Source: Clostridia bacterium (GTDB taxonomy: Bacteria; Bacillota; Clostridia; Christensenellales; UBA1242). From it: 41,758 nt of DNA. A program made the position numbers and the translations under genes. Location: assembly GCA_017501645.1 (NCBI GenBank), contig JAFVWN010000038.1, positions 1-41,758 on the forward strand. Direction: 5' to 3'. Positions 38,233 through 41,758 of the stretch are shown one piece after another (the first letter of the stretch is position 1; each line of letters starts with the position of its first letter). The notes beneath the pieces are model-generated. The model was not told where the DNA came from and searched no databases. It was given only the letters and a program-made list of their open reading frames with translations.

Positions 38233-39708
38233 TTATTCTTTGCCTAGTTCAACAGAAGATGAAGAGATACTTTCTTGTTTTTTGTCTTTCAAAGATTCAA
38301 GAAAAGAGTCTGCAATTTCCATAAGTTCTGCGGATGAAAGAGTTGCTGAAAAGGTTTGATTGTGTCTTCTGTCAAAATCGCAAAGGTTGTATTGATTGTT
38401 GTTTTTTGTAAATCTGTTAGGGTGAACTATGCAGTTTCTTAGGTGAACGATAAGTTCGCTCATAGAAGAAGCTCCGTTTATGTTTGGTGCAACTTTATTA
38501 AAAGTTGATTGAAGCTCTGTGTCAAGAGTTGTTGCGTTGGGTGTTGTTCTTTCGTAAATATAGTTGAATACAAAATTGAAATATGCTCTTTCTGTATAAT
38601 TTTGTAAAGAATCTATAGAAAGAGGTAAGAGGGAGTCGTTGAAATAATTGAACTTTTGTGCTTTTGTATCATTTGAGTTTATTGTGAATAACAACTCGCC
38701 AATTTGAACAGAAGGGAAAAAGTTTTCATTTCTTTGGTCGATAATTGAAGAGATAATATAAGAAAGGCGGTGTTGTTTGTTTTCGTCAAAGAGAATGTTT
38801 TGAGCATTAAAAAATTCTTTCAAGAAGAAATTTCCTTTGAATAAAACATCATTAGCTTCAAGTTTGTTAACATCTTGGGCAACCAGACCGCAAAGCCTTG
38901 CAATGTCTTGAATATCTTCAAGTTCAAGCACTCCAGTTGTGTTGAGCTTGCTGTTGATTACAATTTTAAAAAGGTTTGATTTATTGATAAGTGGAACGCC
39001 GTTAATAGATTCTTCATCTTTTAAATCTTGAAGTAAGTGTTCAATTGGTTGTATTGTTGGGTACTTACTTAGAGAAGAAAGGTCAAAAACATCATTTCTA
39101 ACATTTATATTGTAGAATTTTGGGTTTCTTGTTTCAAGGTTCAAGATATTGCAATTCACCATAGCTTCAGGGGAAGTGTAGCTTTCACTCAAGTTCCATA
39201 AAGACCAGGGGATACTGCATAAAAAGTTAAGGGGAAAAGAAACTTTGAATGTTCCGTTGTATGAATTAATGCTGAGTTGTTTGTTTTCAAAGTCATAAGA
39301 AAATTTAGAGTGTGCTATTGCGTTGCGGAGTTGTTTCAAAAAGTTTACATCAAAATTTTGATAGATGTGACCCCAAGATTCAACATTTACATCTGTCATA
39401 TTGAAGGTGTCGGGAATTTCTTGAATAGAGGATAAAACGGTGTCCCAATCTTGAGAGAAGCATAAAAGAGAGAGCACCAAATGTAGGTGTTCAATGTTTT
39501 TATCATCAAAAGAAATAAGTTCCTCGGTTGCGTGTCTAAGTGCTCTTTTTATAAAAAAGTTTCTTCCGTCTTGGTTTGTGTAACTAGAGTATTCTTTTTT
39601 TGTTTGCTCACTTGAAAGATTGCGAATATTTGCGTTTGTTCTTTCAAGGATTTTAGCGAGCTTTTTAGTAGACTCAGCAAGAGAAATAAGTTGTTCTTTA
39701 TTATCCAT
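38233..39708 (-). CDS. Protein with two R-x4-H (HEPN-type) motifs, candidate RNase or defence protein
   Basis: 491 residues; AGAGG ribosome site on the minus strand. No signal peptide or membrane helix. Two similar motifs stand in comparable helix-plus-strand contexts: FLKQLRNAIAHSKF (R128, H133) and VHLRNCIVHPNRF (R424, H429). Each is followed by a Tyr-containing strand and a Leu-rich helix. R-x4-6-H, with N or polar after R, is the catalytic signature of HEPN-domain ribonucleases, found in abortive-infection proteins, HEPN-MNT toxins and Cas13 (which also has two). The rest of the chain is helical and unfamiliar; no Cas13 resemblance beyond the motifs is claimed. It has its own promoter and no partner in the operon. 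An alternative is a non-catalytic HEPN-like protein of unknown role. Confidence 0.6.
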   Translation of the reverse strand: MDNKEQLISLAESTKKLAKILERTNANIRNLSSEQTKKEYSSYTNQDGRNFFIKRALRHATEELISFDDKNIEHLHLVLSLLCFSQDWDTVLSSIQEIPDTFNMTDVNVESWGHIYQNFDVNFLKQLRNAIAHSKFSYDFENKQLSINSYNGTFKVSFPLNFLCSIPWSLWNLSESYTSPEAMVNCNILNLETRNPKFYNINVRNDVFDLSSLSKYPTIQPIEHLLQDLKDEESINGVPLINKSNLFKIVINSKLNTTGVLELEDIQDIARLCGLVAQDVNKLEANDVLFKGNFFLKEFFNAQNILFDENKQHRLSYIISSIIDQRNENFFPSVQIGELLFTINSNDTKAQKFNYFNDSLLPLSIDSLQNYTERAYFNFVFNYIYERTTPNATTLDTELQSTFNKVAPNINGASSMSELIVHLRNCIVHPNRFTKNNNQYNLCDFDRRHNQTFSATLSSAELMEIADSFLESLKDKKQESISSSSVELGKE

Positions 39709-40076: not shown

Positions 40077-40556
40077 ATGAAAAAAATAATTTATATTTTA
40101 TTATTACTTATAGTTCCGTTTTCCTTTTTAAGTGGTTGTAGTTTGTTTGGTGAAAGCAAAAAATATTATGATATGAATCAATCATTTACTTATAACGATG
40201 TAGAATTTAAAATCACAAATTTAAGAGAGGGACAAAGTTTTACAACGACAACAGGTTCAACAGAAACAACAGAAAACTACTTTATATTTATTGATATTTG
40301 GATGAAAAATAATGGTAAAAACGCATTCGATGTTAGGACTTCCACTTTTTCTATTGTGATAAAAGAAACCGAACAAGTAATTTCTTACTACCCAGGATAC
40401 ACTTATTTATATCCAAATAATATTGTAAGAGCAGAATTGAATCCAACCTTTTCTGGTTCGTATAGCATTGTTTTTGAGGTTTCACAACCAACTAGTTCTT
40501 GTAATTATCAATTAAGAGTTGGTGAAAATATTTTTGTTAATCTAAATGCAAATTAG
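40077..40556 (+). CDS. Lipoprotein with DUF4352-like Ig-fold domain
   Basis: 159 residues from ATG 40077, with AAGAGGT 8 bases upstream; an in-frame TTG at 40071 is less likely. Signal peptide with lipobox LSGC (Cys 21). The mature part has the DUF4352/telokin-like order: a strand VEFKITNLREG, a polar loop, then NYFIFIDIWMKNNGKNAFDV (the 'vdv.vkNng' core) and later strands ending VGENIFVNL. Such domains occur in exported Gram-positive lipoproteins of unknown role. The downstream gene starts one base after, or overlaps, its stop and lacks its own ribosome site, so the two are translationally coupled and probably work together, although one is exported and the other looks cytosolic. Confidence 0.75.
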   Translation: MKKIIYILLLLIVPFSFLSGCSLFGESKKYYDMNQSFTYNDVEFKITNLREGQSFTTTTGSTETTENYFIFIDIWMKNNGKNAFDVRTSTFSIVIKETEQVISYYPGYTYLYPNNIVRAELNPTFSGSYSIVFEVSQPTSSCNYQLRVGENIFVNLNAN

Positions 40557-40557
40557 T

Positions 40558-41391
40558 ATGAATGTATATATAGACAAGTATTTAAACGATGATACAATAA
40601 TTATTCATAAAAAAGATTCATATCCTAAATCTTGGATAGATTATTTAAATTCTAAAAAAAAGTTTTTGAAAAAATATAGATATGTGGAAACTTTTAATTT
40701 TAATAAATATGAAAAGTTAAAACAAACAACAGGATATGCAGACCCTTTTCTAAAAATGAATAAATACCATGTTAAGTATGAAGAATATTTTAATGAGTTT
40801 CATAATATTGTAAAAAATACCCATTTTACACTTATTTGTTATCATGCTACAAGACTAACAAAATATGAAGTTAATGACATAAGAGAAAATGGTCTAAGAT
40901 GTTTCGATAAAGAAACTATAACAAAAAAAATTGATTTGTTATACAACAATAAATATATCAGTTTAAAAGAAAAAAATTTTTTAATCAAAAAAAATCTATT
41001 AAATCAAGAACAAGATAGGGCTAATAAAATCTTTTATGTAACCGGTTATTATGACATATCATATAATAGCCATAACAAAAGTTTTATTTTCGATTGTTTA
41101 AATAATTATGGTGGAGAAATTATTTATAATTTAACAGAAAACGCCAAGTTGCTAGAAAAATTAAAAAGTCATAGTAATCCATATATAGTTATTTTACAAA
41201 TCAATAGTAAAAAAATAGATACTTATCAGTTAGCCAACTTGATATTTAAAAATTTTAATTCTAAAACTTTAAACTTTATCTCTTGTTGTGAAAATTCATG
41301 TACAAATATTTCATCAATTTTAGATATCGTAAGTGTAAATAAAAATAGTAAAATTGTATATGCTAATATAAATAAAAAAACAAGCCTTTAA
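40558..41391 (+). CDS. Unknown protein with possible ADP-ribosyltransferase fold
   Basis: 277 residues from ATG 40558, the second base after the upstream TAG; ATG 40546 would overlap that gene by 11 bases and add four residues. Neither has a ribosome site, so translation depends on coupling. The centre has ICYHATRL (Y95-H96-A97-T98) followed by EVNDIRENGLR and, near 160-190, IFYVTGY and NNYGGEIIY (E187). Y-H-x-T, then I-x3-GL, an aromatic strand and a later Glu are reminiscent of PARP/KptA-like ADP-ribosyltransferase folds (H-Y-E type). This is motif-level inference only. Very Lys/Asn/Ile-rich and AT-richer than most genes here, suggesting transfer. No signal peptide. Next to the double R-x4-H protein and an RNA-like array, a defence or toxin role is a reasonable hypothesis. 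Confidence 0.45.
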   Translation: MNVYIDKYLNDDTIIIHKKDSYPKSWIDYLNSKKKFLKKYRYVETFNFNKYEKLKQTTGYADPFLKMNKYHVKYEEYFNEFHNIVKNTHFTLICYHATRLTKYEVNDIRENGLRCFDKETITKKIDLLYNNKYISLKEKNFLIKKNLLNQEQDRANKIFYVTGYYDISYNSHNKSFIFDCLNNYGGEIIYNLTENAKLLEKLKSHSNPYIVILQINSKKIDTYQLANLIFKNFNSKTLNFISCCENSCTNISSILDIVSVNKNSKIVYANINKKTSL

Positions 41392-41430: not shown

Positions 41431-41467
41431 TAAATAAAAAAGACTAAATCGGGGTTCGATTTAGTCT
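41431..41467 (-). terminator. Hairpin terminator after conserved RNA element copy 1 (minus strand)
   Basis: AGACTAAATCG / CGATTTAGTCT is a perfect 11-bp stem with a 5-base loop (41441-41467). On the minus strand it is followed by TTTTTTATTT, as expected of an intrinsic terminator. On the plus strand no T-run follows. Confidence 0.75.
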
Positions 41468-41472
41468 CAATA

Positions 41473-41590
41473 TGGTGCTGGTGGGGCGACTCGTTAAGAA
41501 AACTCACCAGTGGTGAGTTTTTAGACAAAGCCGAGTGTGATTTATAATCATACTCCGGAGGGCGCTAGGCGACCACCTAAAAACGCTTAA
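41473..41590 (-). ncRNA. Unrecognised structured RNA element, copy 1
   Basis: 118 bp, about half GC in AT-rich surroundings and with no open frame of interest. Identical at all 118 positions to 41641-41758. It can fold as several helices: a perfect hairpin ACTCACC-AGT-GGTGAGT extended by A/T pairs, a second hairpin GAGTGTGAT / ATCATACTC with flanking CC/GG, and an outer GGTGG / CCACC pairing that would close a three-way arrangement. Minus-strand orientation is chosen because a hairpin with a U-tract follows the element only in that direction. No promoter was seen immediately before this copy. It does not match any riboswitch, tRNA, tmRNA, SRP or 6S pattern that I know. Confidence 0.55.
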
Positions 41591-41592
41591 TT

Positions 41593-41633
41593 TAAATAAA
41601 GAAAAAAACGATTGTATACCGTCACAATCGTTC
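41593..41633 (-). terminator. Hairpin terminator after conserved RNA element copy 2 (minus strand)
   Basis: AACGATTGT / ACAATCGTT is a perfect 9-bp stem with an 8-base loop (41607-41632), extended by GAAG/TTTC-type pairs. On the minus strand it leads into TTTTTTTCTTTATTT. Its sequence is unrelated to the terminator of copy 1. Confidence 0.75.
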
Positions 41634-41640
41634 TTCTAGT

Positions 41641-41758
41641 TGGTGCTGGTGGGGCGACTCGTTAAGAAAACTCACCAGTGGTGAGTTTTTAGACAAAGCC
41701 GAGTGTGATTTATAATCATACTCCGGAGGGCGCTAGGCGACCACCTAAAAACGCTTAA
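41641..41758 (-). ncRNA. Unrecognised structured RNA element, copy 2
   Basis: Second copy of the 118-bp element, identical to 41473-41590, ending exactly at the window edge, so it may be longer or followed by more copies. The period is 168 bp, with 50 bp of unrelated sequence between copies. See copy 1 for structure and orientation. Confidence 0.55.

What the first reader, a model, noticed from the sequence alone, without database searches (positions are those of the whole stretch)
41431..41758. Tandem, perfectly identical 118-bp structured elements of unknown class
Two copies match at all 118 bases, are GC-richer than the surroundings, carry no frame, and contain several strong inverted repeats (ACTCACC/GGTGAGT, GAGTGTGAT/ATCATACTC, GGTGG/CCACC). 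On the minus strand each is followed by a hairpin and U-tract. This looks like an array of small RNA genes of a family I do not recognise, next to possible defence genes.
Basis: partly seen in the sequence, partly recalled or inferred. Interest (0 to 1): 0.85.

Follow-up and report, generated by a model that had tools for sequence, protein, structure and literature searches.

The report
tRNA-hugging mobile hairpin repeats
The two identical 118-bp sequences are probably not small-RNA genes but copies of a short, non-coding, hairpin-rich repeat that, across many related gut Clostridia, sits beside tRNA genes (and in other hairpin repeats) and carries a copy of the tRNA's own end, with no enzyme yet found that could move it.

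Summary
In detail: two 118/118 identical copies (41473-41590, 41641-41758), 48% GC against 30% around, no frame, strong inverted repeats. The contig ends exactly at the second copy; a further copy starts at the end of contig C38 of the same genome, directly behind tRNA-Leu(CAA). On the minus strand every unit ends with that tRNA's own 3' end (CCACCAGCACCA) and a terminator, so this is a 168-bp tandem array at a tRNA 3' end. The same genome has diverged copies at tRNA-Thr(CGT) and tRNA-Gly(CCC). A covariance model finds the core in 136 of 396 Christensenellales genomes, its stems supported by compensatory changes. In the window's family most copies lie within 400 bp of an intact tRNA, of many isotypes, and end in a piece of it. 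Elsewhere the core interrupts unrelated palindromic repeats, another core, or phage DNA. Rfam has no match. Dispersed identical copies and empty sites indicate a mobile REP/MITE-like element. Y1/RAYT, IS110, reverse transcriptase, TnpB and extra tyrosine recombinases were tested as partners; none fits. What moves it is unknown. The sRNA-gene and defence readings are not supported.

The parts
41641..41758 (-). Copy 2 of the element (118 bp), at the contig end; minus strand reads H1-H2-H3 and then the tRNA-Leu(CAA) 3'-end copy
41473..41590 (-). Copy 1 of the element (118 bp), 100% identical
41485..41531 (-). H3 hairpin with conserved asymmetric internal loop CTA / CTTAACG (also 41653-41699 in copy 2): the class-wide conserved core
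41473..41484 (-). Copy of the 3' end of tRNA-Leu(CAA), CCACCAGCACCA (also 41641-41652)
   Evidence: sequence directly
41591..41640 (-). Spacer of the 168-bp unit with rho-independent terminator; with the tRNA end 88% identical to the stretch behind the intact tRNA in contig C38
41440..41472 (-). Last terminator of the array, unrelated to the unit terminator; probably the original terminator of the tRNA
   Evidence: sequence directly; inference

Best explanation
A tandem array of a short (about 80-120 bp core, 168-bp unit) non-coding mobile element of REP/MITE type, installed at the 3' end of a tRNA-Leu(CAA) gene. The core folds into hairpins H1-H2-H3; H3 has a nearly invariant asymmetric internal loop (CTA / CTTAACG) closed by variable but complementary pairs. 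Shown: dispersal, hairpin conservation, a precise H3 end nearly always abutting CC, a variable other end, preference for the loops of tRNA genes and for other palindromes, and a duplicated tRNA end that leaves the tRNA gene intact. Inferred: the element moves as a folded single strand, its H3 end being cut and joined next to CC beside a target stem-loop, the other end being set loosely and picking up or copying target sequence (one-ended, rolling-circle-like or replication-coupled); arrays grow by repeated insertion or by recombination between units. The enzyme is unknown; a trans-acting or host enzyme is inferred because none of five usual families fits.
For: Further copy behind tRNA-Leu(CAA) in C38; own-genome copies at tRNA-Thr(CGT) (159-bp tandem) and tRNA-Gly(CCC). 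Six genus-mates have the same tRNA-Leu without the element. Order: 136/396 genomes, 53/143 genera; family: 38/297 by BLAST. In the family 39 of 53 pattern hits (38 of 49 after dropping four weak matches) lie within 400 bp of an intact tRNA, about 4% expected if 45 tRNAs/Mb are assumed. Flanks contain antisense and sense pieces of the adjacent tRNA's T-, anticodon- or D-loop. Covariation 0/500 shuffles, collapses when slid; lower stem CGC/GCG 81, GGC/GCC 38, CGT/ACG 3. The two bases after the element are CC in 128/137. Empty and filled palindrome of one kind in one locus. Identical stretches of about 90-120 nt at separate sites with different flanks.
Against: No mobilising enzyme found, no autonomous copy, no insertion caught between strains. 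The units of the window's array could have arisen by recombination rather than insertion. Conserved hairpins are equally expected of an RNA. One-ended, single-strand transfer is inferred from end anatomy only. Several features (antisense tRNA pieces, duplicated terminators) could come from replication template switching with no element-specific enzyme.
Confidence: 0.6

Rival explanations
1. Array of small RNA genes: the minus strand is transcribed into structured RNAs ended by the terminators.
For: Strong covariation; terminators behind each unit.
Against: No strand mark: G-T 6 against A-C 5 in the H3 stem. Occurs in both orientations to tRNAs, inside other palindromes and phage DNA. The promoter-like matches within the copies are on the plus strand, the terminators mainly on the minus strand. 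No conserved gene neighbour other than tRNAs.
Confidence: 0.1
2. Attachment-site scars: repeated integration of tyrosine-integrase elements at the tRNA 3' end, the elements since lost, leaving attL/attR-like units.
For: tRNA 3' ends restored by a short identity block, at T-loop and anticodon-loop positions typical of integrases (established knowledge).
Against: The same core sits behind many isotypes, at tRNA 5' ends in antisense and in non-tRNA palindromes. Several copy-rich genomes have only one tyrosine recombinase of Xer-like size and one has none.
Confidence: 0.12
3. REP elements moved by a RAYT/IS200-type Y1 transposase.
For: Short palindromes, clustered, intergenic, behind genes, as REPs are (PMC3733652).
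Against: Y1_Tnp found in 18 of 80 genomes, not clearly more often with the element than without, and in none of the window's family examined. No GTAG tag.
Confidence: 0.07
4. By-product of replication: template switching at tRNA and terminator hairpins creates foldbacks and tandem units; no dedicated enzyme.
For: Antisense tRNA loop, 2-4 nt turn, sense tRNA loop in most family units; duplicated terminators (L033, L035, L098); no partner enzyme.
Against: Does not explain a conserved core shared by unrelated sites and genera, nor its nearly invariant internal loop.
Confidence: 0.11

Closest known systems
GTAG-tagged REPs and their RAYT transposases (Di Nocera 2013, PMC3733652)
   Same: Short, non-coding, hairpin-forming, clustered, intergenic, behind genes
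   Different: No GTAG tag, no Y1 transposase in most carriers, conserved internal loop, tRNA pieces carried in the unit, 80-120 bp instead of 20-40
CGTC-tagged REPs (same paper)
   Same: Palindromic, dispersed, described as lacking a dedicated transposase; many copies here read CGTC near the H3 foot
   Different: CGTC is not conserved: the window's copies read GAGTC, the changed base co-varying with its partner; three hairpins and tRNA-derived flanks
tRNA-integrating genetic elements (tyrosine integrases; from established knowledge)
   Same: Sit at tRNA 3' ends and restore them from a carried copy; T-loop and anticodon-loop positions
   Different: No integrase, no cargo, about 100-170 bp, many isotypes with one core, also non-tRNA palindromes
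IS91/ISCR and Helitron rolling-circle elements (from established knowledge)
   Same: One precise hairpin end next to a short fixed target motif, loose other end, tandem copies, capture of flanking DNA
   Different: No autonomous copy seen here; Y2 enzymes were not searched for

Membership tests
REP/RAYT (GTAG) | GTAG tetranucleotide at one end of the palindrome | tested here: not met
   Alignments A1 and A3: no GTAG at either foot of H3
REP/RAYT (GTAG) | RAYT (Y1_Tnp) gene in the genome | tested here: not met
   18 of 80 genomes, none of the window's family examined; the own genome was not in that set
CGTC REP | Unpaired CGTC tag at one end | tested here: not met
   Present in most order-level copies, absent in the window's (GAGTC) and in most class-level relatives
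CGTC REP | No dedicated transposase | tested here: met
   Five families tested, none fits, no recurrent neighbour gene; other families untested
MITE | Short, non-coding, dispersed, identical copies with empty sites | tested here: met
MITE | Terminal inverted repeats shared with an autonomous transposon, fixed-length target duplication | tested here: not met
   No fixed terminal repeats or constant duplication seen; flanks vary with the target; no autonomous copy found
Known RNA family (Rfam 15) | Match above gathering score | tested here: not met
   sub-threshold matches only, e.g. GP20-b 16.1 against 36.2 bits
Integron attC | R'' RYYYAAC and R' GTTRRRY boxes pairing at the foot of the hairpin | tested here: not met
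   By inspection only: GTTAAG lies in the internal loop and has no complementary RYYYAAC partner
IS110 bridge-RNA elements | IS110 recombinase present | tested here: not met
   2 of 44 genomes

The most novel reading that the evidence does not exclude
A Clostridia-wide class of minimal mobile DNA that recognises stem-loops rather than a fixed sequence, copies pieces of its target tRNA into itself so that the tRNA gene survives, and is moved by an enzyme not yet known that recognises the CTA/CTTAACG internal loop.
Probability: 0.3. Interest if true: 0.85.

Novelty: new variant of a known kind. Interest (0 to 1): 0.62.

Why it matters
It is a common and, as far as the papers held show, undescribed repeat of gut Clostridia, with a clear structural signature and a searchable model. 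It breaks assemblies at tRNA genes, as in this very window. It also poses a testable question: what moves a 100-bp hairpin that adapts its ends to tRNA genes of many isotypes when none of the usual transposases or integrases accompanies it.

Tried and rejected
Rfam at gathering and relaxed thresholds: nothing for the element. Phage and plasmid records with the window repeat: none; with a class-level copy, no phage and one Subdoligranulum plasmid. Viral contigs: none for the order-type pattern, 8 stretches for the class-type hairpin, in palindromes or genes. Group I/II introns, retrons and bridge RNA were considered because of the tRNA-loop position: the element is too small, and reverse transcriptase and IS110 genes are mostly absent. 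TnpB guide RNA was considered because of the precise end: TnpB in 2 of 44 genomes, one of them the window's own. Partner gene within 2.5 kb: the largest ORF cluster appears to be translation of the repeat itself; the rest look like housekeeping genes. Literature searches by concept and by sequence string gave no description.

Full report
What is there. The two copies are exact (118/118) and form a 168-bp tandem unit. They are GC-rich (48% against 30%) and non-coding. The window is contig C35 of a 1.46-Mb, 67-contig genome and ends where copy 2 ends, as assemblies do inside repeats.

The tRNA link. Contig C38 of the same genome ends in 50 bp of a further copy (98% identical), preceded by an intact tRNA-Leu(CAA) and a spacer 88% identical to the one between the window's copies. 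Read on the minus strand, each unit is: terminator, hairpins H1-H2-H3, then CCACCAGCACCA, the 3' end of that tRNA. The last unit is followed by an unrelated terminator, probably the tRNA's own. That C38 and C35 are neighbours is inferred from this match; the gap was not closed. Six genus-mates carry the same tRNA-Leu without the element. In the same genome a diverged pair of tandem units (159 bp apart) sits at tRNA-Thr(CGT) and one copy at tRNA-Gly(CCC), both on the 5' side of the tRNA in antisense.

Relatives. BLAST in the family finds 38 of 297 genomes, the match being mostly the core and not the tRNA piece. Of 53 pattern hits in these loci 39 lie within 400 bp of an intact tRNA; dropping four weak matches leaves 38 of 49, where about 4% would be expected if 45 tRNAs per Mb are assumed. 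Isotypes include Leu (TAA, CAA, CAG), Asn, Ser, Gln, Trp, Thr, Arg, Lys, His and Gly. Most copies without an intact tRNA close by still end in what looks like a tRNA 3' end, often at a contig edge. The unit usually holds, in order, an antisense piece of the tRNA's T-, anticodon- or D-loop, a turn of 2-4 nt, the sense piece, the core, and the rest of the tRNA outwards.

A model of the core (R1) hits 136 of 396 Christensenellales genomes; the order name rests on the labels of the public hits. A pattern scan of public genomes gives 106 stretches, nearly all labelled Clostridia, Christensenella, Ruminococcus or related MAGs. Weaker relatives occur across the class (29 of 291 sampled, the order included), with the same tRNA arrangement but often the core in the other orientation, and 5 of 398 at phylum level with a short model (that search has strict filters, and the five include the own genome).

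Structure. In 27 aligned cores 96.9% of cells pair, 9 of 17 pairs show double changes, and the covariation score is 0.375 against 0.114 in shuffles and at most 0.07 when slid. In the class-wide H3 the pair next to the internal loop occurs as G-C 15, C-G 5, T-A 4, A-T 3 with no exception. The loop (CTA / CTTAACG) is nearly invariant. G-T and A-C oddities are equally rare in the stem (6 and 5), so nothing marks one strand as RNA. This favours selection on DNA hairpins, weakly.

Mobility. Besides tRNAs the core interrupts palindromic repeats whose empty form is in the same locus (L073: GACAGC-TC-CCTCCCGG empty, GACAGC-core-CCTCCCGG filled), other cores head to tail, and phage DNA. Identical stretches of about 90-120 nt recur at separate sites with different flanks. 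The H3 end is precise and abuts CC in 128 of 137 cases; the H1 side is variable, and some copies lack H1-H2 (L089).

Who moves it. Y1 transposase: 18 of 80 genomes, none in the window's family as sampled. IS110: 2 of 44. Reverse transcriptase: 6 of 44. TnpB: 2 of 44, one in the own genome. Tyrosine recombinases: nearly universal, but G059, G001, G404, G601, G536 and G653 have a single one of about 350-380 aa, taken here as the housekeeping Xer, and G337 none. No recurrent neighbour gene. A dedicated enzyme of these families is therefore unlikely; untested families and host enzymes remain.

Verdict. Observation confirmed, sRNA-array reading not supported, real and interesting element. Kind: REP/MITE-like interspersed hairpin, new variant. 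Mechanism beyond that (folded single strand, one-ended joining next to CC at a stem-loop) is inference.

Noticed in passing
L011, L012, L028, L179 (between the tRNA terminator and the core): A second, unrelated structured insert of about 100-150 nt (GGGNNCCC AAAA..TTTT GGGAWAAAGGAG ...) placed in the same way, between antisense and sense copies of a tRNA segment.
   Followed up: no
L219 (genus-mate, behind tRNA-Leu TAA): A different insert of about 200 bp followed by a repeated tRNA-Leu 3' end, so this tRNA end-restoring layout may be used by more than one element.
   Followed up: no
L073, L174, L177 and other order-level loci: Abundant intergenic palindromes CCCTCAGTC..GACAGCTCCCTC..GAGGGAGCC, themselves dispersed and serving as targets of the element.
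   Followed up: partly
window 38233-39708 (-): 491-aa protein with a sub-threshold HEPN hit (PF18736, 22.6 against cut-off 26.6); no PADLOC match.
   Followed up: partly
window 40546-41391 (+): Roughly 280-aa protein without any Pfam or PADLOC match, ending about 80 bp from the array.
   Followed up: no
L070, L071, L073 and 12 further loci: Translation of the repeat gives a recurring peptide (AIIDCFPLWLKT...) that could be annotated as spurious hypothetical proteins.
   Followed up: no
L086: A contig labelled Candidatus Gastranaerophilales carries an order-type copy; probably a binning error.
   Followed up: no
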